A DNA stretch of 64,000 nt from Paludibacteraceae bacterium (GTDB lineage Bacteria > Bacteroidota > Bacteroidia > Bacteroidales > Paludibacteraceae): contig JAFYSK010000063.1 of the NCBI GenBank assembly GCA_017559385.1, positions 1 to 64,000 of the forward strand. The letters are read 5' to 3'. Shown here one piece after another: positions 4,095 to 34,632 of the stretch. The translations under genes and the position numbers were made by a program. The notes below the pieces were generated by a model, which had not been told where the DNA came from, made no database searches, and saw nothing but the letters and a program-made list of their open reading frames with translations. Position 1 is the stretch's first letter. Each line of letters opens with the position of its first letter.

Positions 4095-4113
4095 TGTTTA
4101 GGGTTTAGTGGAC

Positions 4114-4210
4114 GCGCCAGAGGCGCTATGGTTTAGGGTTTAGGGGCGATAGGCTATGGGCGATAAGGCGATGAGGCGATGAGGATATAGCTCCTATGGC
4201 GCTAGGCGCC
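4114..4210. repeat. mini-hairpins and GTTTAGGG / GCGATAAGG phrases
   Basis: Two 5-3-5 mini-hairpins are present: GCGCC-AGA-GGCGC at 4114-4126 and GGCGC-TAG-GCGCC at 4198-4210. They are separated by short phrases (GTTTAGGG repeated, GCGATAAGGCGATGAGGCGATG). The block lies directly before the long-hairpin element. No coding potential is seen. Confidence 0.6.
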
Positions 4211-4213
4211 AAG

Positions 4214-4508
4214 AAATCTTATAAATCTTTTTGCCCAAATAACCACCCATCCCTAAGCACTCCGTGATAAATTACCACCGCTCCTTGTATCGGGAACATC
4301 CGATACAACACCGCTGAATCTTAACTGCACCGACTCTGAAATGGCTTTGATATGCGTACCGCCACATTTATAAGATTCAATGACTGAGCACGGAACGCGC
4401 GGAAGGAATGGTGGCAATAGATTACGGAGTACATAGAAAAGAGGGATTAAGCGTGGGAGATAAGATTAATAAGATTTCTCGAGCAGCTTGCTGCGAGTAG
4501 GAGCTAAC
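4214..4508 (+). repeat. long-hairpin element, copy 1 (terminal inverted repeats 4214-4229 / 4462-4477)
   Basis: The ends AAATCTTATAAATCTT and AAGATTAATAAGATTT are inverted repeats with one mismatch in 16. Inside them lie further pairing arms. CTCCGT..ATTACCACC..TCCTT (about 4260-4284) pairs with AAGGAATGGTGG..ATTACGGAG. GAATCTTA pairs with TAAGATTC. A small apical hairpin TTGTATCGG/CCGATACAA is also present. A second copy lies at 18930-19340 in the same orientation, and similarity extends about 30 bp past the right inverted repeat. There is no ORF. It could be a MITE-like element or a structured RNA. The rest of 4509-4596 is A/T-rich phrase DNA. Confidence 0.65.
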
Positions 4509-4596
4509 ACCTTTAAAACTCTTAGAACTGTTAGAACCCTTATAGGTTTAGAGTTGGGATTGGTGGAAGGATTTTATCAAAAAATAGCTTTCCTAC

Positions 4597-4627
4597 TTGC
4601 AAATGTGGGAAAAATATATTAATTTTG
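4597..4627 (+). promoter_or_regulatory. promoter for the FHA gene
   Basis: TTG at 4597-4599, 20 nt, then TAATTTTG at 4620-4627. The ATG at 4665 is 37 nt downstream of the box. Confidence 0.7.
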
Positions 4628-4664
4628 CAACCGCAAAGATAAAAACTTATAAAAATACAAAAAC

Positions 4665-5567: not shown

Positions 5568-8500
5568 ATGCAATTACGCAAGATGACATATTTCGGTCGA
5601 ATGACAGCCGGCATAACCTCCTGGTTACGCCTCGCTTTGCTGTTGCTATGTGTCAGTGTTTCAGGTGTGCTATTGGCGGATCGCTGGGAGAATACCCAAT
5701 ACAACACCACCGAGGGAAATGAATTCTACATCACTACGATGAAGAATGGTGGATTGACAGCGGAGGATGTGTTTTCTGTGTACATGTATGCAACAGCTCG
5801 CAAGGCGACATATATATGTATCACTAATGACGATGGATCGTATAAAAAAATCATACAGATTCCCGCTCGAGGACAGGCTGGCTGTAATATTCCTGTAAGT
5901 TATATATATTCTGACGCTACAGATGATAACATGGATGCAGCCTATAGTGATACGAGGTATATCGTAACCAAGGCTCAGGATAAAAGTTTGCTTGTATATA
6001 CATGTAATGCCAATGGTGTAAAGGATACTACATCTAGCGTATCGGTGTATATTACTAGTTATCACTGGACTGCTGGTTTCGAAGCAACCAATGTGCTTCC
6101 TGTAAAAGCCCTTGAGAGGGAATATATGGTTCAAACATATCTTGAAGATAGTTATGCTACAGAGTTCGCTGTAGTGGCCACAGAGGATAATCAAGTGTTT
6201 GAGGTGGTAGCACGACTACGAGAGACTGTTGAAGGTAGAGATACACTTATATGTGATACAGTATTTCAGTTTACATGCAATAAGGGACAAACCCGTGTTC
6301 TCAGGTGTACAAATGCTTTACATTCGTTATCTGGTAGCTATGTTTGTTCTGACTCTAAGTTTGGTTTGATAAATGGTAATCAATCTGCCGTTATTCCAAT
6401 TGATGCAAGAGTGCAAAACCATATTTTTGAGCAAAATGTTTCTACCGATAAGTGGGGACGAAATTTTGTTGTAACTCCTACGGCAGGGCACATTGATGGT
6501 GTGGATCATGTGTTATTGACGGCTATAGAAGATGGGACGGTTATTAAGAAGAATGGCGCTGTGCTCACCACATTGCAAAGTGGGGAGACATTTTTGGACG
6601 AAGTTGTGTATCAAAATAGAAATTATAACGCTCCGTATTATTCTTCTAATAAGCCAATACTTTGCTATCTGTATGAAACAGGTGATGGCAATAAGGATGA
6701 AACTGGCAAGGCATGGGGAGTGCCATCTATGACTATGATTACACCTTTGGAAATGGGTGTAAATTCTATCATGGTAGCAGCATTTAATGCTACCAAAGAA
6801 GACTTAGGCTTGCCTAGAGGAGTAACGATAGATGAGCAATATATCAATATTGTAACTAAAACGGAGTACGCGAAATCGATTTATATTGATAATGAGAATA
6901 ACAAGATTACTGGATTTAGAACCGTAGCTGGCAATCCTGCATATAGTTATGTGCTATACAAACTAAAAGACAAGAAACCTCACTTAGTAGGTTGTACTAA
7001 CCCTAATGGAACTTTTACCATTCGTTTGTATGGTCACTCTAAATCTAACTCATACTCCTATGTGGCTGGTTCGCGCGTTAACCGTGCGGTGGATATGTTG
7101 ATTAATGACAAATACATTAGATACCTAAGAATTTGTCTTAACGATAAAGTAAAATTCACTCCGCTAATTGATTTCGAATACGATAGAGATAATACAAAAT
7201 GGATAATAGGCGACGATGTCATTCCTTTTACGAGTTTAGGTGACGATGGCATAGTTAAAAACTATCAATTTGATACCACAGGTTTGTATGATGTATATTT
7301 GGTGGTTCAAAGTTATACTCCTTTGTGCGAAAAGCCATTGATTGACACTATTCATGCTCAGATTGAAGTGGATGATTTGTCTTACAAAGCCGTAGTTTAT
7401 AATCCATGTTTTGGTGATGACTTTGAGTTGCAATACAAAGGTCAACAAATTCCGCTGAAAGCTGATACCTCTGATCAGTATTGGGAAGGACAAGCATTTC
7501 GATTTGCGGTGGGCGTGCCTAAGGTATTTGCGGATACCATACCTGCGACTACAGAGGATGAATGTGATTTGGTCTTGCGGCAAGTGGTAACAGTTCGTCC
7601 TGTTTATAAAGACACCTTCGATACAACCGCTTGTGATGTGTGGTATTGGGAGCATGAAGAGAATGGTAAGATAGACACAGTATATACCTTCCGCGTCAAT
7701 CCAGGTGATAAGTTGCCAGTAACCAAGGAGCATACAATTCGTTTTGGTACTCGTTATTACGATTGTGATAGTATTGTTACATGGCGTGTCACGCTGAACA
7801 AGTCGTATAGTTTTGTTGAAGATAGTATTATCTGTCAAGATCTATCAGGCCAACTTAAGTATATATGGACTGGTCATGACACGATAGATACACCAATAGA
7901 CAAGGTGGGTACATATACATATGTGGATCATCTGAAGACTAAACATGAACCATATTGCGATAGTATCCATACCTTGCGTCTAAAGGTGGTGCCAAGTTAT
8001 GATTCAACAGAAGTGGTGACTATATGTCAAAATGAGTCATTCACGTGGAGTGTAAATGGAAAGAGATATGTCGGTAATAAATTCAGTAATATCCAGAGCA
8101 CTGACGTCGTATTAAATACATTGAACGAAACTATTACATTTGTTGAAACCTTTGAAACAGACGCTTTTGGTTGTGATAGTATTCATCGACTAGAAATAAT
8201 GGTATATCCTAGTTATGATACGACCTATGTGGAAGAAATATGCGATAACCAGATATACGAACTGAATGATACTATCGCATACTATGGCAATAAATATAAA
8301 GCGGATGGTTTAGCTGCACAAGCTGCTGCTTACAAATTTGATCACTTCTTTAAGACAACAAATGACTGTGATAGTATTGTTCGCTTGGAATTGTATGTAC
8401 ATCCAACGTATGAAATAATAGAGGATACTGCAGTTTGCCAACAAGAGGATGGAATATTCATATGGAATAATCATACTTCATTCTTTAGTGTAAACCTTAA

Positions 8501-11500
8501 CAAACAAGTTACCACAATACCAATTGACCAACCAGGTACCTATCAATATATCGACAGTCAGGTCACCTCCAAAGGTTGTGATAGTATTCATATTCTCGAT
8601 ATAACGGTTTATCCTACCTATTTTACACCCAAAGACACGGTATTATCCAACGAGGATAAGATTGAGTGGGAAAATTTGCTAATTGCAGGTAAGGACGCTG
8701 GGGCTATCAATCCGGACTATATTGTCACTAAGGACACTATTATTCAGGTTATATATGATTCAAAAAATCAGTGTGATAGTATCTTGCAGTTGAATATTTC
8801 ATTTGGTGAGGTCTTCCGCGATACTACATATGGAGTGGCTTGTGATAATGATAAGGTATATCATTGGTATTGGGATAACAATGGCAAGAAGCAATATCTA
8901 AAAGATGTAGAAGTACCTAGTGTGGCTTCTGTATATGAGTTTACCGAAAAACGCAAGTCTAGCATTGGTGTGGATTCGTTGTTTTATTTGTATCTAACGG
9001 TTAATCCTACTTATTATATGGAGACCGTTGCTTCGATATGCGAAGGTAATCAATACATCTGGAAGGTAAAAGATGCTAATGGTGATTCGGTTAAAATTAC
9101 TGACCCAATATTTGATGAGCAAAATAACAAATTAATAAGTCCGCTAGATATACCAACTATCTTGGCAGATAATAATGACTCTCCTCAAACATTCAGATAT
9201 ACCTATCATCTCAAGACAGTAGCGTGCGCTACTTGCCCACCAGAAGGTTGTGATAGCGTATATAGTTTGGTCTTGACTATCCTGCCGCAATATGATCGCA
9301 CTGAGACTTTGGCTATGTGTGATAATGATTCCATACAATGGAATGGAGAGTGGTTCTATGGTTATAAGTCTGGTCATGTATCTTCTATAAAGAGTGACAC
9401 ATTGATTACCCGCGAGTATCAAAACGACCATGGCTGTTTGAGTTATAAGCGCTTGCAACTGATACTATACCCATCTTATCTGGATGTCGCACCCACTGAT
9501 ACTACATACAAACATATATGTGAGAATGAGAAATATGAAACCAGCTATGGCAAGGTGTACAATGCCAATGGAGAGTGGGATACCCCTGATGGCGTAGTTT
9601 CGCGATATGTGGTAATAGATACTATTGAGACTAAGGCTTGTGCTTCATGCTATGACACTGATTTAAAGTGCGATAGTGTGGTGGCTAGTGTGGTATATGT
9701 ATATCCAACCTACTTGTATGTGACATATGATGTGATTTGCCAAAATGATAACTATCAATGGGTGGTTCGTGATCAAAATGGTGACTCTATCAATGTGATT
9801 CGCGACAACATATATGATGCGGAGGATCGATTAGTCAATAGTATTCCAACGGACCAACATGGACAGTTTGAATATAGATATTACACCAAAACATGTGAGG
9901 AGTGTTCTAACTCTGTTCGTTGCGATAGTACTCATATACTTTACTTGACGATTCTTCCACGAGCCAATACGGTAGAAACCTTGTGGATGTGCGATAATGA
10001 TTCTGTATATTGGGCTCGCACGGATAAATGGTTCTATGGCGACAAAGTTCCAAATGCATCCGGTGTTACATATACTAGTCAAAAAGATCCATATTGTATC
10101 GTGGTGCCAGCAAGCAATGCATATGGCTGCGATTATGAACAGATTTTGTACTTGTATGTACGACCATCCTATGTGATAGACTCGATTGTTCACATATGTG
10201 ACAACCAAGTGTTCATGCTGAATGAAAATATCTTCTATTATGGTGATCAATATAAGGCAGATGGACTAGCGGCTGGCGAGTATCATTATACACATACATT
10301 CAAAACTACTGATTGTAGCGAATGTGCAGATAAAGGCTGTGATAGTATTATTAATCTTACTTTGTTTGTACATAAAACATACAGTTATGTCCAAAATGAT
10401 ACCGTCTGCAAGGATGACGCAAACTATTACTCATGGCAAATCATAGATCCTTTGAATGGTAATACGACCATCCTAAGTGGAATGATTAGAGATGAAAAAA
10501 ATCTAGCGGATATTAGCGCTTCAAATATACCTACAAATGAGTTAGGAACTTTTACATACACCTACAAAACCCTGACAGAAACTTGCGAGGATTGTCCTAA
10601 TAGTGGATGTGATAGTATATGGACTCTGCAGCTGACCGTGATAGATGGCTATGCTATACATAGGGAAATTCATATGTGTGATAACGATACTGCAGTTTGG
10701 AATAACCAATTGTATGTAGGCCAACAGTTTACTGGTATATATGATCCTACCCAATACAAAATAGTTAAACAAATTTCATCCTATGATTACTATGATACCA
10801 TACCAGGTACAAGTAAATATGGTTGTGATAGTACACACTTCCTTAAGTTGCGTGTCCATCCTACCTATTTACAACCAGTTAGGATAGATACGATTGATAG
10901 ATGTGACAACGAAACATATCTCTTCTATGGTACAGAGTATAATACAACAGGTGAATGGCATACTGGAAAAGACACTACGCAATTCATTACTCTAAGTCAT
11001 ACAGATACTACAATCAATGGTTGTGATAGCGCAGTGGTACATGTTCTCCGCGTGCATCCAACCTTTAATAATCCAGTAGTATATGACACTATTTGCCATA
11101 GTGCATTGCCATACAACTATCCAGATGCGCATGCTACTAGCCTACAGGGATTGATGCAATCAGGTGTCTATACTCACACTTTAAAGACCCAGCATGGTTG
11201 TGATAGCATTATCACACTGGATTTAACGGTTAACCCATCTACCACTAATCGAGTATCTGTGACATGGTGTCGAAGCGCTGGGCCATATACATTTGATAGT
11301 ATCGAGACTCCTAAGCTATGCGATTTGACGCAGTCTGGAGTTTACACTGATACATTGCAAACAATAAAAAACCAATACGGTTGCGATAGTATTATAGAAT
11401 TGCATCTTACCATATTGGAAACCATCGTAACGCATCTGTACGATAGTATATGTGACAATCAATTGCCATACAACCACTGGGATACTCGCGCAGACAATTT

Positions 11501-14500
11501 GTTAAATCTAACCGAAACTGATGTCTATAGAGATACGCTCATATCTGAATTAACCGGTTGTGATAGTGTGCTTGTGCTGCATTTGCAAGTTAATAAGACG
11601 TATAATACCACTGACACAATCACTATATGCGCTAGCGAAGGTAGTCCATATATCTGGAGACCTAGTGATGTGAGAGGTCCGCAAGAGATAGCCATCCCAT
11701 TTGAGATTGATGATAGGGTGAATGTCAAGGACAAACAAACGCTCGTATTGAATGATTCGTCGGTACTATTGCAATCCGTACACGGCTGTGACTCGTTGGT
11801 GAATTTGTGCCTGATTGTCCATCCTACCTATGAGTTAGTAGAAGTAGATACTGTGGATTGTCAAGATACTATCGACAGGTACTCGACATGGACTGACCAG
11901 CTAGGCGGTGTGCACCAGATAGACATATCTGAGGCGGGTTGGATAACGATTGCTGAGAATCCTGGTACAATATATGGCTGCGATTCGATCATTGGTATCA
12001 AACTATATGTCAGACCTACCTATCGCTATGACTCGGTATATACGATTTGTCAGGATGAGCGAATCACTTGGCAGGGTAAGACCTATGCCGGAAGCCACTA
12101 TGGCTATAACTATCAAATGCTGTCGGATGGTAAGTATGCTGAGCATCGCGATTCGGTGTACTACCTATACGAGCCTGGCGATTCCATCCTAGAGGCGGGT
12201 GTGCATCATGATACCATCGTTTATCCAACGATACTGGGCTGTGATAGTACATTCTATCTCACGCTGAATGTACTGCCTACTAGCAACACGATCTTAGATG
12301 TCTCGGTTTGTGATAGTGAGGGTGAGTACGTGTTTAAAACCAGTGACAAGAACGGCACTTACTATGATACCATACCTATCTTCCCTATTACCGAGATGAT
12401 AGATTCGGTGCGCAAGGATACGGCATTCCATATGCGACAACGCACCTTGAAGACTCCGGATGGCTGTGATGGTACCGTCTATTTGCACTTGACAGTCACC
12501 CCTACCTATGAGTATATCACACGGGCAGAGATCTGTAAAAATGATACATTTACCTGGCGCGAAAATGGTTACGATAAGGCAGGTATTTACTATGATAGAC
12601 GCATAACAGAGCAAGGTTGCGACTCGAACTTTATCTTGGAGCTATTCGTGCGCCCTGTTCTCTATATACCTAAGACCTTGCATGCTTGCGACAATCAAAC
12701 CGTGATGCATTCCGATACGCTGTGGTATGATCCGGATTCTGTGCGTTTTGCAGTGGAAACCACTTTGCTATGGAAACCGGGTATGGAGATTCCTAAGCCA
12801 GACGATAAACCTCGCGAGTTACATTATTATACACTAGATGGCCGCTGCGACTCAATTATCTATCAGTATTATCTCCACATCCACCCAACATACGACTCCA
12901 TAGCTAATGCTACCATATGCTCTAATGAGTCCTATCAGTTGCACGATAGCTTTATATATACACCAGCTGTAGCATACCACGAGCCAGGTAGTAATCCGGC
13001 GGTGATAGACACCTTGATCACGGATAAATTGAAGACAGTCACCTGTGAGGAATGCGAGGGTAAAGGTTGCGACTCTATCTTCAGTGCCAACATACGAATC
13101 CTGCCAGCCTACAAGCATGTGGACAGTGTAACAATCTGTTCGAATGAGAAATATGATTGGCAAGATACTATATTATATGAACCTCAGGGGGACACCACGA
13201 TAACATATTTCTATCAAAAATCATATACTACAGAGTTGGGTTGCGACTCAATTTACGAAATGTACCTGACCGTTCATCAGGCATATGACCATGATGTCTT
13301 TGATACAATTTGTTCGGATGAATACTATCATTTTGGCGATACCCTATTGAATCAGACGGGTGAATATTTGGATACCCTACGAACCATACATGACTGCGAC
13401 TCGATTGTGCATCTGTACTTGACGGTATATGATACCACTGTTGTTGAGACCTATGATACGATTTGTGTGACGGAGAAGTATTATTACTTTGGAAAGGAAT
13501 ATACTGAACCTGGTGTTTATGACACCATCACGCTCAACGACTGGGGTTGCAAGCAGTACAACTACCTCCACCTGGCAGTCATCGACACCACGGTGTATAA
13601 CATCTCAATTGGCGATGTACTATGTGCCGACGACGAGGAGCTTTGGGTGGAATACGAGTGGATATCCGGACGCCGATTGATAGAGTACTCCGTCTTCTTC
13701 GACGAGTTTGGTCACTCGCAGGGCTTCGAGGATATCATTCATGCACCGCTGGATCCTACTTTGAGCTATTTTGCTATTCCTATACCACGAGGCGAAGATC
13801 TGCCTATGCCTCCTCACGCATACTTCGATTCGCAGCAAGGCGTCAATAGCTTTATCAACGAAACCAAGCAAAACTATCCTGAGCCTAACCGATACACCAT
13901 GCGTGTGGTGATGCACAATGGTATATGTGGCGATTCGCTGCAACGCAAGGATACCACCATCAGCTTCTGGTATCCATCATGGATACACGAGCAGCACTGG
14001 AACGATGTGATCGTGCTCTACCGAGATACCTTCAACGGCGGATACCAGTTCTCTAACTATCAGTGGTACCAGAATGGCCAACCATTACCAGGAGCCACAG
14101 GCGAGTACCTGTACCTACCTGAGCAACTGCTGATGAACCAGCGTGGCGATTGCAGCAACTACTATCAGGTAGAGCTGACCCGTCTGAGCGATGGTTATAC
14201 CACGATGACCTGTCCTATCTGCCCTGTGCTGATGAAGGATACCATCGTGCCACAAGACACCTACTTCTCCGTAGTACCAACCCTCGTGCCAAAGGCCAAT
14301 CCGGTGATACACTTCCTGGCATCGCATGCGGGTACATATACAATAACTACGCTGATGGGTAATACAATAGTCTCCGGAGAATTCACGCCAGATGCTAATA
14401 ACTACGCGGGTAATGTGGACCTGAGGGATTATATCAGTGCTACTAACACCATTCTGAATGTCAAGTTGACACTCAATACGGGTGAGACTCGTACGATAAA

Positions 14501-14519
14501 AGTAATGATAGGTAATTAA
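5568..14519 (+). CDS. giant secreted repeat protein with IgGFc-binding N-domain and T9SS-like C-terminus
   Basis: 2983 residues. A signal-anchor-like segment (LRLALLLLCVSVSGVLLA, about 20-37) precedes an IgGFc-binding-type domain to about residue 420, with NHIFEQ, WGRNFVVTPT and TAIEDGTVI. From about 730 to 2660 there are some 29 repeats of 65-75 residues. Most end GCDSI..L.L.V.PTY, and each next unit usually opens with a second Cys (IC.NE.Y.W), which suggests one disulphide per repeat. The last about 80 residues (GTYTITTLMG ... ETRTIKVMIGN) look like a type IX secretion C-terminal domain. ATGs at 5568, 5583 and 5601 are all possible starts. The stop overlaps the next ATG (TAATG). Likely a cell-surface adhesin; the ligand is unknown. 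Confidence 0.8.
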   Translation: MQLRKMTYFGRMTAGITSWLRLALLLLCVSVSGVLLADRWENTQYNTTEGNEFYITTMKNGGLTAEDVFSVYMYATARKATYICITNDDGSYKKIIQIPARGQAGCNIPVSYIYSDATDDNMDAAYSDTRYIVTKAQDKSLLVYTCNANGVKDTTSSVSVYITSYHWTAGFEATNVLPVKALEREYMVQTYLEDSYATEFAVVATEDNQVFEVVARLRETVEGRDTLICDTVFQFTCNKGQTRVLRCTNALHSLSGSYVCSDSKFGLINGNQSAVIPIDARVQNHIFEQNVSTDKWGRNFVVTPTAGHIDGVDHVLLTAIEDGTVIKKNGAVLTTLQSGETFLDEVVYQNRNYNAPYYSSNKPILCYLYETGDGNKDETGKAWGVPSMTMITPLEMGVNSIMVAAFNATKEDLGLPRGVTIDEQYINIVTKTEYAKSIYIDNENNKITGFRTVAGNPAYSYVLYKLKDKKPHLVGCTNPNGTFTIRLYGHSKSNSYSYVAGSRVNRAVDMLINDKYIRYLRICLNDKVKFTPLIDFEYDRDNTKWIIGDDVIPFTSLGDDGIVKNYQFDTTGLYDVYLVVQSYTPLCEKPLIDTIHAQIEVDDLSYKAVVYNPCFGDDFELQYKGQQIPLKADTSDQYWEGQAFRFAVGVPKVFADTIPATTEDECDLVLRQVVTVRPVYKDTFDTTACDVWYWEHEENGKIDTVYTFRVNPGDKLPVTKEHTIRFGTRYYDCDSIVTWRVTLNKSYSFVEDSIICQDLSGQLKYIWTGHDTIDTPIDKVGTYTYVDHLKTKHEPYCDSIHTLRLKVVPSYDSTEVVTICQNESFTWSVNGKRYVGNKFSNIQSTDVVLNTLNETITFVETFETDAFGCDSIHRLEIMVYPSYDTTYVEEICDNQIYELNDTIAYYGNKYKADGLAAQAAAYKFDHFFKTTNDCDSIVRLELYVHPTYEIIEDTAVCQQEDGIFIWNNHTSFFSVNLNKQVTTIPIDQPGTYQYIDSQVTSKGCDSIHILDITVYPTYFTPKDTVLSNEDKIEWENLLIAGKDAGAINPDYIVTKDTIIQVIYDSKNQCDSILQLNISFGEVFRDTTYGVACDNDKVYHWYWDNNGKKQYLKDVEVPSVASVYEFTEKRKSSIGVDSLFYLYLTVNPTYYMETVASICEGNQYIWKVKDANGDSVKITDPIFDEQNNKLISPLDIPTILADNNDSPQTFRYTYHLKTVACATCPPEGCDSVYSLVLTILPQYDRTETLAMCDNDSIQWNGEWFYGYKSGHVSSIKSDTLITREYQNDHGCLSYKRLQLILYPSYLDVAPTDTTYKHICENEKYETSYGKVYNANGEWDTPDGVVSRYVVIDTIETKACASCYDTDLKCDSVVASVVYVYPTYLYVTYDVICQNDNYQWVVRDQNGDSINVIRDNIYDAEDRLVNSIPTDQHGQFEYRYYTKTCEECSNSVRCDSTHILYLTILPRANTVETLWMCDNDSVYWARTDKWFYGDKVPNASGVTYTSQKDPYCIVVPASNAYGCDYEQILYLYVRPSYVIDSIVHICDNQVFMLNENIFYYGDQYKADGLAAGEYHYTHTFKTTDCSECADKGCDSIINLTLFVHKTYSYVQNDTVCKDDANYYSWQIIDPLNGNTTILSGMIRDEKNLADISASNIPTNELGTFTYTYKTLTETCEDCPNSGCDSIWTLQLTVIDGYAIHREIHMCDNDTAVWNNQLYVGQQFTGIYDPTQYKIVKQISSYDYYDTIPGTSKYGCDSTHFLKLRVHPTYLQPVRIDTIDRCDNETYLFYGTEYNTTGEWHTGKDTTQFITLSHTDTTINGCDSAVVHVLRVHPTFNNPVVYDTICHSALPYNYPDAHATSLQGLMQSGVYTHTLKTQHGCDSIITLDLTVNPSTTNRVSVTWCRSAGPYTFDSIETPKLCDLTQSGVYTDTLQTIKNQYGCDSIIELHLTILETIVTHLYDSICDNQLPYNHWDTRADNLLNLTETDVYRDTLISELTGCDSVLVLHLQVNKTYNTTDTITICASEGSPYIWRPSDVRGPQEIAIPFEIDDRVNVKDKQTLVLNDSSVLLQSVHGCDSLVNLCLIVHPTYELVEVDTVDCQDTIDRYSTWTDQLGGVHQIDISEAGWITIAENPGTIYGCDSIIGIKLYVRPTYRYDSVYTICQDERITWQGKTYAGSHYGYNYQMLSDGKYAEHRDSVYYLYEPGDSILEAGVHHDTIVYPTILGCDSTFYLTLNVLPTSNTILDVSVCDSEGEYVFKTSDKNGTYYDTIPIFPITEMIDSVRKDTAFHMRQRTLKTPDGCDGTVYLHLTVTPTYEYITRAEICKNDTFTWRENGYDKAGIYYDRRITEQGCDSNFILELFVRPVLYIPKTLHACDNQTVMHSDTLWYDPDSVRFAVETTLLWKPGMEIPKPDDKPRELHYYTLDGRCDSIIYQYYLHIHPTYDSIANATICSNESYQLHDSFIYTPAVAYHEPGSNPAVIDTLITDKLKTVTCEECEGKGCDSIFSANIRILPAYKHVDSVTICSNEKYDWQDTILYEPQGDTTITYFYQKSYTTELGCDSIYEMYLTVHQAYDHDVFDTICSDEYYHFGDTLLNQTGEYLDTLRTIHDCDSIVHLYLTVYDTTVVETYDTICVTEKYYYFGKEYTEPGVYDTITLNDWGCKQYNYLHLAVIDTTVYNISIGDVLCADDEELWVEYEWISGRRLIEYSVFFDEFGHSQGFEDIIHAPLDPTLSYFAIPIPRGEDLPMPPHAYFDSQQGVNSFINETKQNYPEPNRYTMRVVMHNGICGDSLQRKDTTISFWYPSWIHEQHWNDVIVLYRDTFNGGYQFSNYQWYQNGQPLPGATGEYLYLPEQLLMNQRGDCSNYYQVELTRLSDGYTTMTCPICPVLMKDTIVPQDTYFSVVPTLVPKANPVIHFLASHAGTYTITTLMGNTIVSGEFTPDANNYAGNVDLRDYISATNTILNVKLTLNTGETRTIKVMIGN

Positions 14520-16309: not shown

Positions 16310-16771
16310 ATGCGTCTGAAGAGTGATGTAAATATTAAGAATCGTCGTGCGTCGTTTGACTATGAGATAATGGATCGCTATGTGGCTGGTATTCAGCTGT
16401 ATGGCACGGAGATCAAGTCTATACGCGAAAGCAAGGCGTCGCTGGCGGACACCTACTGCCAGTTTGTGGGGATGGAGCTATGGGTCAAGCAGATGCATAT
16501 TGCGGAGTATCGCTTTGGCAGTTATACCAATCACGAGGCCAAACGCGATAGAAAACTCTTGTTGCAGAAGAAGGAGCTTCGTAAACTGGAGAAACAGGTG
16601 AAAGACACTGGTAAAACCATTATACCTTTGCGTTTGTTTATCAACGAGAAGGGACTGGCTAAGATGGAGATCGCGCTTTGCCAAGGTAAGCACACCTACG
16701 ACAAGCGTCAGTCGCTGCGTGCTGCTGACGACAAGCGTGAAATGCAACGCGCTTTGCGCGCAGCGCACTAG
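16310..16771 (+). CDS. smpB: SsrA-binding protein SmpB
   Basis: 153 residues, normal length. SmpB binds tmRNA and carries it to stalled ribosomes for trans-translation. Diagnostic stretches are [31 protein letters not shown], the [23 protein letters not shown] core and [13 protein letters not shown], then a basic tail [19 protein letters not shown]. The last codons contain a GCGC-TTT-GCGC mini-palindrome and the stop runs into GCGGCGTACGGCGTACGG, so the extreme C-terminus may have been altered by intergenic repeat DNA. No ssrA gene is seen in the window. Confidence 0.95.
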
Positions 16772-16838
16772 CGGCGTACGGCGTACGGCGTAGCCGCGGT
16801 TTTAGAGGTTTTAGGAGTTTTAGAAGTTTTAGAAGTGT

Positions 16839-17223
16839 ATGAAAGCGACGAGTTTTGAGGATTTAAGAATTTGGCAAAATGCTAGAGAATTATCTAAAGA
16901 GATTTATAGAATATCTCGCTTTACTGAATTTAGTAAAGATTATAGATTTGTAGGACAAATTACTTCTGCAATGGGGTCAGTGATGGATAATATAGCTGAA
17001 GGATTTGAGAGAGATGGTAATAAAGAGTTTTTTTCAGTTTTTATCCATAGCGAAAGGGTCGTGTGGTGAGGTTAGAAGTCAGTTATATAGAGCATATGAT
17101 GCAGGATATATAGACGAGGAATTATTTAATACACTTTTAGGAAAAATAAGGGCTCTAAGTTCAAGTATATTTCACTTTATGAAATACTTTGAGGGCTTCA
17201 GATATAACAGGAAAGAAACATAA
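16839..17223 (+). pseudogene. four-helix-bundle (S23-type) protein, frameshifted
   Basis: Frame 1 from 16839 gives SFEDLRIWQNARELSKEIY ... [14 protein letters not shown] and stops at 17069. The next frame continues [20 protein letters not shown] and runs to 17223 (about 127 residues in total). This is the 23S-rRNA-intervening-sequence/four-helix-bundle family. The break sits at a run of seven Ts (17028-17034); six Ts would restore the family-typical reading. It may be a pseudogene, a phase-variable tract, a transcriptional-slippage site or a sequencing error. A TTTTAGAGG/TTTTAGGAG phrase block precedes the start (16800-16838). Confidence 0.75.
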
Positions 17224-17241
17224 GGAATAGCCCTTAAAACA

Positions 17242-17404
17242 GCACCCCAGGTGCGACTAAAACCCTTAAAACTTTTAAAACAGCACCCTAGGTGCGACTA
17301 AAACCCTTAAAACTCCTAAAACAGCACCCCAGGTGCGACTAAAGCAGCGGCTTTGCCGCGATAAAACAGCACCCCAGGTGCGACTAAAACCGCACCTTTG
17401 GTGC
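17242..17404. repeat. mini-hairpin array upstream of the m5C methyltransferase
   Basis: Six 13-bp mini-hairpins occur at 17242, 17283, 17324, 17347, 17369 and 17392. Five are GCACC-NNN-GGTGC (loops CCA, CTA, CCA, CCA, TTT) and one is GCGGC-TTT-GCCGC. The first three repeat with a 41-bp period, joined by linkers that start GACTAAAACCCTTAAAAC. The last hairpin ends 10 nt before the ATG at 17415. No TAnnTTTG promoter is visible here. Confidence 0.75.
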
Positions 17405-17414
17405 GCCAAACGAG

Positions 17415-18758
17415 ATGTTACCAATAGACTTCATAGAATCATTACACAGTCAGATGTCGCCTGAGGAGGCGCAGATGTTGTGTCAAGCGCTGGCCACCGA
17501 GCCAGTGGTGTCTATCCGATTAAATGATAAGATAGACTGCCTATCCTTTGATGCCGACACCGAGGAGGTGCCATGGCACGAGGATGGTTATTACCTGAGT
17601 AAACGGCCTCAGTTTACGCTAGATCCGCTCTTTCATGCGGGTTGCTATTATGTGCAAGAGGCTAGTAGTATGTTCCTTGGCGAGGTACTCAATCAGTATG
17701 TCCAACGCGATAGTATCGTGCTGGATATGTGTGCTGCGCCTGGTGGTAAGTCCACGCTCATCAGCCAGTATCTGGGCGATGAGGGATTGCTGGTGAGCAA
17801 CGAGGTAGTGCGCCAGCGTGTGTTCATCCTATCGGAGAACATCCAGAAATGGGGCAACGGCAACACGGTGGTGACGCACAACTATGCGGCCGATTTTGGC
17901 AACAAGTTGCAGAACCTATTTGATTGTATTTTGGTGGATGCACCATGCTCGGGCGAAGGTATGTTCCGCAAGGACGCAGGTGCCGTAGAGGAATGGAGTC
18001 AGAAGAACGTGAGCGACTGTGTAGCCCGTCAGTGCGAGATACTGGACGAGGTGTGGGATGCGCTCAAGCCTGGTGGTGTGATGATCTATTCTACCTGTAC
18101 CTTCAACGAGGAGGAGAACGAGAAGAATGTGCAGTGGATCATCGACGAACTAGGTGCCGAGGTGCTGCCTGTGGCCTATGACCCTAATTGGGGCATCGTA
18201 GAGGGCCGCGTAGGTTATCACTTCTATCCACATAAGGTCAAGGGCGAGGGTCTGTATATGTGTGCGCTGCGCAAGAAGGGTGCACCCGGAGCCACTTTCC
18301 GCATACCTAAGCAGAAGAACACAGCGCCTAAGACCAAGATCGATGGCGAGGCAGAGATGCGCAGTTGGTTGAAGCATCCTGATCGTTGGGTGATTCGTCA
18401 GCAGGAGCGATTCATGTCGGCTTATCCAGCTAAATACAAGGAACTCATTGAGTATATCTCTACGCAGTTTATCTGCATCAGTACGGGTTTTGGTATTGGT
18501 GAGTTGAGGGGCAAGGGCGTAGCGCCACAGCATTCGTTGGCAATGCTCAAGGACCTTAACAAGCAGGCTTTTGTGTGTGCCGAACTGAGCCTAGAGCAGG
18601 CTCTGGCATACTTGCGCAACGAGGCGTTGGTGATCGATGGTGTAGCCCAGGGTATGGTGTTGGTGACCTACGAAGGTGTACCATTGGGCTTTGTGAAGAA
18701 TGTTGGCAATCGCTGCAACAACCTCTATCCCAAGGAGTGGAGAATACGCAAGTTGTAG
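17415..18758 (+). CDS. rsmF: rRNA cytosine-C5 methyltransferase (RsmF/NOL1-NOP2-Sun family)
   Basis: 447 residues. The family transfers methyl from SAM to C5 of cytosines in rRNA. Visible motifs: SAM-binding LDMCAAPGGKS (about 113), DAPCSGEGMFRKD with the motif-IV Cys (about 175) and YSTCTFNEEENE with the catalytic motif-VI Cys (about 220). After a flexible region (residues 290-320) come a RsmF-type domain and a C-terminal PUA-like part ending NLYPKEWRI. The symbol is by closest family and the target base is not proven. The start is the first ATG after the mini-hairpin array. Confidence 0.88.
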   Translation: MLPIDFIESLHSQMSPEEAQMLCQALATEPVVSIRLNDKIDCLSFDADTEEVPWHEDGYYLSKRPQFTLDPLFHAGCYYVQEASSMFLGEVLNQYVQRDSIVLDMCAAPGGKSTLISQYLGDEGLLVSNEVVRQRVFILSENIQKWGNGNTVVTHNYAADFGNKLQNLFDCILVDAPCSGEGMFRKDAGAVEEWSQKNVSDCVARQCEILDEVWDALKPGGVMIYSTCTFNEEENEKNVQWIIDELGAEVLPVAYDPNWGIVEGRVGYHFYPHKVKGEGLYMCALRKKGAPGATFRIPKQKNTAPKTKIDGEAEMRSWLKHPDRWVIRQQERFMSAYPAKYKELIEYISTQFICISTGFGIGELRGKGVAPQHSLAMLKDLNKQAFVCAELSLEQALAYLRNEALVIDGVAQGMVLVTYEGVPLGFVKNVGNRCNNLYPKEWRIRKL

Positions 18759-18929: not shown

Positions 18930-19340
18930 AAATCTTATAAATCTTATTTGCGAGGTTACCTTGCAAGCAAGATTATAAGGTTCTCCGAAACCAATTACCA
19001 CCGCTCCTTCGTCGTCAGTTGCTTGCGACAAGGAACTCGCTAGGCTCGTTGAGGTCGCCGCACCTCCTCCTCTCCCCAAAAAGTCACGAACTTTTCGGGG
19101 GCCCCGAGAGGGGCACATCCAAAACGTGACCGCTGAATCTTAACTACAACGACTCTGATTAGACTCTGATTGGTCATTGCAATGTGTACCGCCACATTTA
19201 TAAGATTCAATGACTGAGCACGGAACGCGCGGAAGGAATGGTGGTAATCCATTGCGGAGCACATAGAAAAGAGGGGTTGAGCGTGGGAGATAAGATTAAT
19301 AAGATTTCTCGAGCAGCTTGCTGCGAGTAGGAGATAACAC
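18930..19340 (+). repeat. long-hairpin element, copy 2 (terminal inverted repeats 18930-18945 / 19292-19307)
   Basis: Same terminal inverted repeats as copy 1. The right half from CCGCCACATTTATAAGATTC to about 19340 is nearly identical to 4353-4508. The inner arms still pair although their sequence differs (CTCCGAAACCAATTACCACC against GGTGGTAATCCATTGCGGAG). The apical part is longer than in copy 1 and carries a CCCCAAAAAG/CTTTTCGGGG hairpin (19074-19100). No ORF. It lies between the methyltransferase and the epimerase genes. Confidence 0.65.
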
Positions 19341-19366
19341 TCTTAAAACTCTTAAAACTTCATATA

Positions 19367-20938: not shown

Positions 20939-21098
20939 CAGCCAAAGGCTGTAGTTGAAAGAGTTTTAATAGTTTTAGCCGCAGCAAAGCTGCTGTTTTA
21001 GAGGTCAATGCACCCTTAAAACTTCTAAAACCTTTAAAACTTCTAAAACTGCCGAAGGCAATAAAACCCTGAAACCCTAAAAATAGCACCGCAGGTGC
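20939..21098. repeat. mini-hairpin array after the epimerase gene
   Basis: CAGCC-AAA-GGCTG (20939), GCAGC-AAA-GCTGC (20981), TGCC-GAA-GGCA (21050) and GCACC-GCA-GGTGC (21086), joined by CTTAAAACTTCTAAAACC-type linkers. The first overlaps the stop codon region of the epimerase gene. Confidence 0.7.
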
Positions 21099-21110
21099 GC
21101 TTAGAACTAC

Positions 21111-21140
21111 AAAAAAACCGCATTTCCGTGCGGTTTTTTT
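21111..21140 (+). terminator. intrinsic terminator
   Basis: Seven As, CCGCA, six-nt loop, TGCGG, seven Ts. Symmetric, so it can act in both directions. Confidence 0.85.
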
Positions 21141-21160
21141 GTGTGCCCTCCCCTTACAAA

Positions 21161-21191
21161 TCTTTAGTTATTCTTTAGTTATTCTTTAGTG
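21161..21191. repeat. tandem 11-mer TCTTTAGTTAT, three copies
   Basis: TCTTTAGTTAT occurs twice, then a third imperfect unit (TCTTTAGTG), followed to about 21290 by A/T-rich word-like DNA (CATAACTCATAGCTCATCAC). No gene in 21141-21560. Palindromes CGAGTGCACTCG and CGCCAA/TTGGCG occur in the leader before the next gene. Confidence 0.6.
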
Positions 21192-21383
21192 ATTTATTAG
21201 TGATACATTAGTTATTAAGCAACTTTTATTATAAAATCAGCGATCAATTCTCATAACTCATAGCTCATCACTTATCATTCATCGTTCATAGCTAAACAAG
21301 TCTCCTAATTATTCTCAAAAACACCGATTTCCTTTCCAATTAGGATATTTTTATCTAAAATTGCCTAATTTTGTTGCTATTTC

Positions 21384-21414
21384 TTGCTCAGTTCAAAAAA
21401 AATCACTAACTTCG
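21384..21414 (+). promoter_or_regulatory. probable promoter for the YhcG-type gene
   Basis: TTG 21384-21386, 20 nt, TAACTTCG 21407-21414. The box has C for T at one position. The leader of about 148 nt contains two palindromes. Confidence 0.5.
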
Positions 21415-21561
21415 CAGGCTGTTTATTGTGCGCACACCCCTACGCGAGTGCACTCGAGGGAACAAACACTTCCGCCAACAAACTATTGGCGATTTAGAAG
21501 AGAAATGGGGAAATCAATCACCACCAATAATTTTGAATAATATTAAAACATTAAAAGCGAC

Positions 21562-27773: not shown

Positions 27774-27807
27774 GAAGCGAGTTGAAAGTGTTTTAGGAGT
27801 TTTAGTC

Positions 27808-27842
27808 GCAGCGTAGCTGCTGTTCTAAGGTGGGCTGCGCTC
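27808..27842. repeat. mini-hairpins between the 1509-aa gene and the peptide gene
   Basis: GCAGC-GTA-GCTGC at 27808-27820 and a wobble-paired GGGC-TGC-GCTC at 27832-27842. They are followed to 27890 by CACCCTTAAAACTTTTAAAAC linkers. Confidence 0.6.
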
Positions 27843-27903
27843 GACTAAATCACCCTTAAAACTTTTAAAACCCTTAAAACTTTTAAAACTCTTTTTGAAT
27901 ATT

Positions 27904-30298: not shown

Positions 30299-30401
30299 AA
30301 GCCGTGTAACGTGTAAGTGTAAAGTGTAGGTGCCAAAGGCGCAGCGTAGGGTGTAAGGAGTAAAGGCGATGAACCCTTAAACCCTTAAAACTCCTAAAAC
30401 A

Positions 30402-30578
30402 GCACCACAGGTGCGACTAAAACCCCTAAAACTTTTAAAACAGCACCACAGGTGCGACTAAAACCCTTAAAACTTTTAAAACAGCACCATAGGTGTGACT
30501 AAAACCCTTAAAACTTTTAAAACAGCACCATAGGTGCGACTAAAACCCTTAAAACTTCTAAAGCAGCAGCTCTGCTGC
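30402..30578. repeat. mini-hairpin array with 41-bp period upstream of the helicase
   Basis: Five mini-hairpins: GCACC-ACA-GGTGC (30402 and 30443), GCACC-ATA-GGTGT (30484, a wobble pair), GCACC-ATA-GGTGC (30525) and GCAGC-TCT-GCTGC (30566). Start-to-start distance is exactly 41 bp throughout, with linkers GACTAAAACCC ... TTTTAAAACA. The last hairpin ends 9 nt before the helicase ATG. The 30299-30395 stretch before it holds AAGTGTAAAGTGTAGG phrases and no gene or promoter. Confidence 0.8.
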
Positions 30579-30587
30579 GACTAAAAT

Positions 30588-34467: not shown

Positions 34468-34521
34468 GGGGCTTTAGGGGTTATAGGGGTTTTAAAAGTT
34501 TTAAGGGTTTTAGAGTTTCAG

Positions 34522-34610
34522 GCGGCTTTGCCGCTTGTTTCATGTGCCGTTGGCACTTGTTTCAGTGTTTCAAGCTTGAAACAGCGAAGCGGTGAAACAG
34601 CCCGCAGGGC
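34522..34610. repeat. mini-hairpin array with GAAAC linkers
   Basis: GCGGC-TTT-GCCGC (34522), GTGCC-GTT-GGCAC (34544), the palindrome CAAGCTTG (34571) and GCCC-GCA-GGGC (34600), linked by TTGTTTCA/GTGAAAC words. Adjacent 34480-34515 holds TTTTAAAAGTTTTAAGGG phrases. Confidence 0.7.
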
Positions 34611-34632
34611 GTGAAACCTTTCAACTCTTTAT

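What the first reader, a model, noticed from the sequence alone, without database searches (positions are those of the whole stretch)
17242..17404. Array of 5-3-5 mini-hairpins ending at the start codon of an rRNA methyltransferase gene
Six 13-bp hairpins occur in 163 bp. The stem is kept (GCACC/GGTGC, once GCGGC/GCCGC) while the 3-nt loop varies (CCA, CTA, TTT). The first three repeat every 41 bp with a shared A/T linker. The last lies 10 nt from the ATG and there is no standard promoter in the gap. Variable loops on a fixed stem suggest selection on structure, or a copying process that edits loops. Similar hairpins occur in at least eight other gaps of this window.
Basis: seen in the sequence. 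Interest (0 to 1): 0.75.

Follow-up and report, generated by a model that had tools for sequence, protein, structure and literature searches.

The report
Hairpin array ending a decayed gene element
The row of tiny hairpins before a ribosomal RNA methyltransferase gene is real, and it looks like one end of a decayed small genetic element that carries a gene of the 'four helix bundle' family between mirror-image arrays of short repeated words, an arrangement seen around many relatives of that gene in this and other bacterial groups.

Summary
Observation confirmed: six 5-3-5 hairpins at the stated places; 27 in the window's gaps against 0.7 in shuffles, far more than for loops of 4-8 nt. They sit in an array of period-9 words (TTAAAACYY) that recurs genome-wide (144 matches, control 2). 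Many PF05635 genes share this anatomy: inverted flanks at z>4 in 17 of 30 versus 5 of 229 control ORFs, two of those five being PF05635-type themselves; 101 of 149 rows at z>3; 7 of 10 on cyanobacterial plasmids. At one orthologous site (95 gaps, genus g30) gene presence is patchy, arms covary, and words follow the PF05635 lineage rather than the host. Best reading: the array is the 3' arm of a decayed PF05635 element with word-array ends, resembling rRNA intervening sequences. Mini-hairpins inside arms are a habit of this genus; their role is unknown. No Y1 transposase or reverse transcriptase was found in the own genome (85% complete). Movement is inferred, not shown.

The parts
16310..16771 (+). 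smpB, gene upstream of the gap
   Evidence: PF01668 E 9e-55
16799..16838 (+). 5' arm: four GTTTTAG words, period 9, ending at the start of the PF05635 frame
   Evidence: sequence; TAAAACNNNTAAAAC on the minus strand at 16799, 16808, 16817; inverted to the 3' arm, z 7.4 (L100) and 7.1 for the whole gap
16839..17069 (+). first reading-frame piece of a broken PF05635 (23S_rRNA_IVP, four helix bundle) gene, 76 aa then a stop
   Evidence: HMM 16857-17039, 60.5 bits, cut-off 33.8; translation
17023..17169 (+). second piece of the same broken gene, in another frame
   Evidence: HMM 42.2 bits
17234..17404 (+). 3' arm: CTAAAAC/TTAAAAC words, 41-nt tandem units, six 5-3-5 mini-hairpins
   Evidence: RNA fold z -4.9 (17234-17420)
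17242..17254 (+). hairpin GCACC CCA GGTGC
17283..17295 (+). hairpin GCACC CTA GGTGC
17324..17336 (+). hairpin GCACC CCA GGTGC
17347..17359 (+). hairpin GCGGC TTT GCCGC
17369..17381 (+). hairpin GCACC CCA GGTGC
17392..17404 (+). hairpin GCACC TTT GGTGC, 10 nt before the ATG
17415..18758 (+). RsmF/NOL1-type 16S rRNA methyltransferase gene downstream
   Evidence: PF01189, PF17125, PF13636
30394..30586 (+). second array of the same 41-nt unit (five hairpins, one with a broken stem) before a DEAD-box helicase gene; no PF05635 match beside it
   Evidence: whole gap inverted z only 2.0
20939..21105 (.). dispersed array: GTTTTA words, hairpins, then TAAAAC words; no PF05635 match
   Evidence: inverted z 3.8, stretch chosen by eye
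27774..27890 (.). dispersed array: GTTTTAG words and hairpin, then TTAAAAC words; no PF05635 match
   Evidence: inverted z 7.5, stretch chosen by eye
34468..34632 (.). dispersed array: GTTTTA words, 5-3-5 hairpins, then TGAAAC words; no PF05635 match
   Evidence: inverted z only 1.2

Best explanation
The hairpin array is the 3' arm of a decayed small element. Its unit is: word-array arm, a PF05635 four-helix-bundle gene of about 120-130 codons, then the same words inverted. Shown by sequence statistics: in most examined cases the two arms carry the same locus-specific short words in inverted order, with the G-richer strand pointing inward; arm words and gene lineage go together; gene presence at one site flips repeatedly between related species; inverted word arms also occur without the gene. 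Inferred: the unit moves as an element, the arms pair as a stem in RNA or single-stranded DNA with the gene at its tip (as rRNA intervening sequences do), and the oligomeric protein binds the repeated words. In this genus the arms also hold n-3-n GC mini-hairpins between words. At 16799-17404 the gene is frameshifted and the 3' arm has grown by 41-bp tandem duplication. Any effect on rsmF would be a by-product.
For: Broken PF05635 gene beside the array. Inverted arms at this locus z 7.4, whole gap 7.1. Inverted z>4 in 17 of 30 PF05635 genes vs 5 of 229 control ORFs, two of the five being PF05635-type genes. Phylum sample: 20 of 30 at z>3; direct orientation z>4 in 2 of 30. Pooled: 101 of 149 rows at z>3 (one element counted twice); inward word G>C in 91, C>G in 7, equal in 3; inverted structures of general own-genome gaps show no such bias, 20:21. 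One orthologous site: 47 of 52 occupied gaps z>3; own-arm score 37.5 vs permuted 25.4 sd 1.25, max 30.7 in 5000; word similarity follows PF05635 identity (partial r 0.66 given host) and not host (0.05); at least 15 presence/absence changes on the neighbour-protein tree. At non-orthologous sites arm similarity rises with protein identity, 0 of 5000 permutations. Of the eight closest relatives of the window's first protein piece in the pooled set, six have GTTYAA words and two GATTTGA or TTTCAGA words, by eye close to GTTTTAG. Cyanobacterial plasmids: 7 of 10.
Against: Of the five PF05635 loci over cut-off in the own genome only two (L099, L100) pass z>3; L096 0.9, L097 2.1, L098 -0.8, although words can be seen by eye. 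Gene-less TAAAAC arrays are common, so the gene may have landed in an existing array; of four such window arrays only two pass the inverted test (z 7.5 and 3.8, stretches chosen by eye; the others 2.0 and 1.2), and the L016 gap, whose arms are inverted by eye, does not (z 1.2). The gap test, limited to arms within 150 nt of a centre, did not flag the window's own gap. Only 71 of 298 arms pass a strict tandem-period test, both arms in 15 of 149. The own right flank ranked first in only 5 of 30 and 15 of 34. Words of the wider circle of relatives vary more (TTACAGA, ACAAACG, CTGAAAC). No near-identical copies at two sites and no target-site duplication were seen; no Y1 transposase or reverse transcriptase in the own genome (85% complete; other transposases not searched). 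Mini-hairpins are absent from the arms at the g30 site.
Confidence: 0.64

Rival explanations
1. Array first: intergenic words and hairpins are ordinary degenerate minisatellites made by slippage and template switching, and PF05635 genes merely tend to survive or land in such hairpin-prone gaps.
For: 31 of 169 own-genome gaps have significant word periodicity, and by coordinates only three of the 31 adjoin a PF05635-type match; TAAAAC words at 144 places, five PF05635 loci over cut-off; the L016 gap has words and hairpins without the gene.
Against: Control genes rarely have inverted locus-specific flanks, 5 of 229; words follow the protein lineage rather than host or site; two protein lineages at one site carry different words.
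Confidence: 0.27
2. The array is a structured leader selected to control rsmF translation or mRNA stability.
For: Ends 10 nt before the ATG; RNA fold z -4.9; hairpin excess.
Against: The same array unit precedes an unrelated helicase gene at 30394-30586; the related gaps have other hairpins (L016) or, by eye, none of this kind (L021, L022); no Rfam match at E<=1.
Confidence: 0.05
3. REP/RAYT-type element: mini-hairpins moved by a Y1 transposase.
For: Dispersed palindromes with an associated gene resemble a REPIN/RAYT layout.
Against: No PF01797 match in the own genome; none of the six hairpins is preceded by GTAG or CGTC; by eye the hairpins between words have stems of 2 to 6 bp in related arms.
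Confidence: 0.03

Closest known systems
23S rRNA intervening sequences (IVS) encoding S23p
   Same: Same protein family (PF05635) between terminal inverted repeats; sporadic distribution; PMC4990558 (passages read) reports a 28-bp terminal stem, cleavage by RNase III in vitro, and mobility as an old hypothesis.
   Different: Here the unit lies between protein genes, and the arms are degenerate arrays of short words that differ from locus to locus.
Cyanobacterial STRR (short tandemly repeated repetitive) sequences
   Same: Usually 7-bp repeats that can form a hairpin between genes, function not known (PMC2670836, one passage read); words of this look flank PF05635 genes on cyanobacterial plasmids.
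   Different: No PF05635 gene is mentioned in the passage read; the window's words have period 9 and carry mini-hairpins.
REPIN/RAYT systems
   Same: A gene flanked by repeats, plus gene-less copies of the repeats elsewhere in the genome (layout recalled; search listings only).
   Different: No Y1 transposase in the own genome, no GTAG/CGTC tag; arms are word arrays.
BrickBuilt MITE of Porphyromonas gingivalis
   Same: Bacteroidales intergenic tandem repeat between small inverted ends (PMC4596501, abstract and outline read).
   Different: 23-nt repeat; no PF05635 gene mentioned in the abstract.
DGR accessory protein Avd
   Same: Related family: weak NF033474 hit of a relative (L222), 26.7 bits; likely homology noted in PMC10053308 (passages).
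   Different: Below the Avd cut-off (80 bits); no reverse transcriptase match in the own genome.

Membership tests
23S rRNA IVS | Encodes a PF05635/S23p protein | tested here: met
   Two pieces, 60.5 and 42.2 bits, cut-off 33.8; gene broken
23S rRNA IVS | Ends are inverted repeats able to form a stem | tested here: met
   L100 inverted z 7.4; whole gap 7.1
23S rRNA IVS | Lies inside a 23S rRNA helix | tested here: not met
   Lies between smpB and rsmF
23S rRNA IVS | Excised from RNA by RNase III | not testable with these tools
   Needs RNA
REP/RAYT | Y1 (PF01797) transposase gene | tested here: not met
   0 matches in own genome, 85% complete
REP/RAYT | GTAG or CGTC tag beside the hairpin | tested here: not met
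   None of the six hairpins of the array
DGR with Avd | Reverse transcriptase (PF00078) in the genome | tested here: not met
   0 matches in own genome, 85% complete
DGR with Avd | Protein reaches the Avd cut-off | tested here: not met
   26.7 vs 80 bits for a relative, L222; the window's own pieces were not scanned
MITE / transposon | Target-site duplication at an insertion | not tested
   No clean occupied/empty pair with unchanged flanks was compared
STRR | Tandem words forming a hairpin between genes | tested here: met
   Anatomy only, with period 9 instead of 7
STRR | Occurs in filamentous cyanobacteria | tested here: not met
   Nearest named rsmF is that of a Paludibacteraceae MAG, 92%

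The most novel reading that the evidence does not exclude
PF05635 genes are the coding members of a widespread class of transposase-less mobile elements whose ends are arrays of short words. The (probably pentameric) four-helix-bundle protein reads the words, about one per subunit, and helps copy or place them. rRNA IVSs, cyanobacterial STRR hairpins and the dispersed word-and-hairpin arrays of Bacteroidales would be three faces of one system, gene-bearing or gene-less.
Probability: 0.3. Interest if true: 0.9.

Novelty: new variant of a known kind. Interest (0 to 1): 0.7.

Why it matters
S23p/IVP proteins are abundant (PF05635 in 157 of 198 genomes sampled from the window's phylum), and the paper consulted says the functionality and origin of IVSs remain unclear. 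STRR repeats are likewise said to have no known function. A link between the protein family and inverted word arrays gives both questions one testable object: what does the protein do to these words?

Tried and rejected
RAYT/REP origin: no PF01797 in the own genome. Reverse-transcriptase partner: no PF00078. Known RNA family: no Rfam match at E<=1 in 16700-17500. Terminators: five of the six hairpins (all except 17347) read as minus-strand terminator-like sites because TTTTA words follow (6 sites in the stretch, shuffles 0.9); none on the + strand, so termination towards rsmF is not suggested, but a minus-strand role is not excluded. A leader specific to rsmF: comparison with L016, L021 and L022 does not support it. 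The tandem-period test of single arms was weak (71 of 298), so the claim rests on inverted similarity. Literature: ten searches listed no paper whose title or abstract start links PF05635/S23 genes to flanking inverted word arrays or STRRs. I saw passages of seven papers (in PMC2858038 only a reference line, in PMC10910872 only a legend line) and the abstract and outline of one. No paper was read whole, so absence in print is not proven. No structure was predicted; two solved relatives have five chains each (2gsc, 2rld), taken as pentamers from the chain count and recall.

Counts and drops: one search tested 30 PF05635 loci (L116 and L124 left out as short, L109 and L130 gave no frame) and all 229 control ORFs found. 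One search kept 84 (five excluded, named in its output). One search parsed 21 of 29 loci tried. The pooled 149 rows hold one element twice (L129 = L364). One search used 49 of 52 (L224, L226, L308 dropped for gene bounds). One search scored 53 with and 42 without the gene; by eye L254 and L304 hold divergent or broken frames of this kind; these two and L255 (no readable neighbour) were left out (53 with, 39 without). One search covered 30 loci and five; searches added 60 loci. Arm-correlation pairs are not independent.

Full report
Six perfect hairpins with 5-bp stems and 3-nt loops lie at 17242-17404, the first three 41 bp apart, the last ending 10 nt before the ATG at 17415. Window gaps hold 27 such hairpins where shuffles give 0.69 (maximum 5 in 100 shuffles); loops of 4-8 nt give 1-5 each. 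In 400 kb more of the genome the count is 24 against 2.0, with loops of 4-8 nt also above shuffles there, 6-13 against about 2. The palindrome GCACCNNNGGTGC occurs 25 times in the 2.0-Mb assembly (control 3), ten of them in the window. Among 60 relatives only G014 (16) and G046 (38) have more than eight, so this hairpin type is unevenly spread.

The hairpins lie inside a word array. The repeated word is TTAAAAC plus two pyrimidines, period 9. TAAAACNNNTAAAAC matches 144 places in the genome, its reversed control two. A 5-3-5 hairpin in a gap has a shared direct 6-mer within 24 nt on either side in 26 of 51 cases, random places in the same gaps in 1041 of 5524. A near copy of the array stands before a helicase gene at 30394-30586. 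Across eight 41-nt units the loop varies in 2 of 3 columns, the stem in 1 of 10, the linker in 1 of 15; one unit has a broken stem.

PF05635 (23S_rRNA_IVP, 'four helix bundle') matches 16857-17039 and, in another frame, 17023-17169. Directly before it stand four GTTTTAG words, the same word inverted. So the gap reads: smpB, GTTTTAG arm, broken PF05635 gene, CTAAAAC arm with hairpins, rsmF. The window belongs to a Paludibacteraceae-like MAG, judged from the nearest named rsmF (92%, L016). In L016 the gap holds GTTCTAA and then TTAGAAC words and other hairpins but no PF05635 gene; the inversion there is seen by eye and does not pass the test (z 1.2). L021 and L022 hold only period-9 words.

The arrangement is widespread. 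For 30 PF05635 genes of this genus and order, the left flank matches the reverse complement of the right flank at z>4 in 17, against 5 of 229 control ORFs of similar size; two of the five controls are PF05635-type genes themselves (that of L099, and the sub-cut-off one of L102). In a phylum-wide sample 16 of 30 pass z>4 and 20 pass z>3; direct orientation passes z>4 in 2. Among relatives of the window's own protein, 18 of the 21 loci that could be parsed (29 tried) pass z>3. On cyanobacterial plasmids 7 of 10 fetched loci (25 records with hits) pass z>3, with words such as GGGAACA and GGGTGTA. In a pooled set of 149 rows, one element twice, 101 pass z>3, and in these the inward-reading word has more G than C in 91, fewer in 7, equal in 3. 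Inverted structures in ordinary gaps of the own genome show no such polarity, 20 to 21 with 3 equal. Against this: in the own genome only L099 and L100 of five loci pass z>3, and strict tandem periodicity is found in only 71 of 298 arms.

Gene-less arrays of the window give a mixed picture. In order, GTTTTA words come before TAAAAC words in four of four mixed clusters of the window and sampled stretches, one of them the finding's own gap. The inverted test passes at 27774-27890 (z 7.5) and 20939-21105 (z 3.8), stretches chosen by eye, and fails at 30299-30587 (2.0) and 34468-34632 (1.2). The gap of the finding passes when arms may lie far apart (z 7.1) and not when they must lie within 150 nt of a centre (z -0.8).

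One site was followed through a genus (g30, unnamed; I take it for Flavobacterium from recall of its gene content). The neighbour gene was found in 194 of 199 genomes. Of 95 gaps examined, 53 hold the PF05635 gene by tblastn and 42 do not, two of the latter having divergent or broken frames by eye. Arms of 47 of 52 parsed occupied gaps pass z>3. The arms of one species fit each other better than those of other species: 37.5 against 25.4 (sd 1.25, maximum 30.7 in 5000 permutations; 49 loci). Word similarity follows PF05635 identity (r 0.73; 0.66 given the host marker) and not the host (0.05 given PF05635). Proteins of about 119 and about 131 residues at the same site carry different words, CTRAGG/CARAGG and GTTTAAA. 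Gaps without the gene often keep an inverted structure: 25 of 40 pass z>3 by the split test, with the same polarity 19 to 4, 18 of 42 by the simpler test. The presence of the gene changes at least 15 times on a tree of the neighbour protein (53 with, 39 without).

Arm words also go with the gene between sites. Among 84 elements, non-orthologous pairs with at least 50% protein identity (126 pairs) have mean arm score 23.5, pairs under 40% (2439) 18.0; none of 5000 permutations reached that difference. Examples at different sites are L106/L113, L097/L112 and L118/L121/L096. The window's first protein piece groups with L123, L099, L122, L249, L310, L129, L232 and L252, with a clear score gap to the rest; six of these eight have GTTYAA words, close to GTTTTAG. 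In the wider circle words vary more.

Mini-hairpins in arms are a local habit: 11 in the arms of 20 elements of the own genus (shuffled 2.0), 5 in 64 other elements (shuffled 2.7), 0 in 44 of the g30 site. So they are not part of the general anatomy. Their origin is open; duplication together with the words is the simplest guess.

Mechanism. Shown by statistics: inverted, locus-specific word arms in most cases tested; covariation; association with the protein lineage; patchy presence; gene-less inverted arms at the g30 site. Inferred: movement as a unit, stem formation with the gene at the tip, and recognition of words by the oligomeric protein. Two solved relatives have five chains each. The nearest published analogue is the 23S rRNA intervening sequence, with a 28-bp terminal stem cut by RNase III in vitro and an open origin (PMC4990558, passages). 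The word arms look like cyanobacterial STRRs, said to be usually 7-bp repeats that can form hairpins, function not known (PMC2670836, passage); a title cited in PMC2858038 places STRRs within RNase P RNA genes (reference line). No transposase of the Y1 type and no reverse transcriptase was found in the own genome, which is 85% complete; other transposases were not searched.

Verdict. The hairpin array is real and, most likely, the 3' arm of a decayed PF05635 element. The element type is a variant of the IVS kind that I did not find described in ten searches of an open-licence library. That it moves, and how, remains to be shown.

Noticed in passing
window 4180-4545 and 19111-19359: Another dispersed intergenic repeat of about 250-370 bp, 86% alike over 249 bp, with strong internal inverted similarity (z 13.2 in gap 4095-4664); further partial copies in L167 and L169.
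   Followed up: partly
own genome, e.g. L168 9467-10080, L170 15374-15850, window 20939-21561: A second class of word array with period 11 (for example TTCCTATGAAG), 11 of the 31 significant gaps.
   Followed up: no
G000:C8:1123-1347 (L102): A longer protein (232-aa frame) with a sub-cut-off PF05635 match, also between word arrays (TCTAGATAG words) with inverted and stronger direct similarity.
   Followed up: partly
L371, L372, L374 (cyanobacterial plasmids): PF05635 genes sit inside CRISPR-Cas gene rows: between cas6 and cas4 twice, between cas10 and a cmr3-type gene once.
   Followed up: no
L223, L233, L258, L265, L273 (genus g30 gaps): Gaps without the PF05635 gene hold, by eye, a CTCCCTCTCC/GGAGAGGG-type inverted repeat instead, another hairpin element at the same site.
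   Followed up: no
window 5568-14519: Open reading frame of 2983 aa on the + strand; not examined.
   Followed up: no
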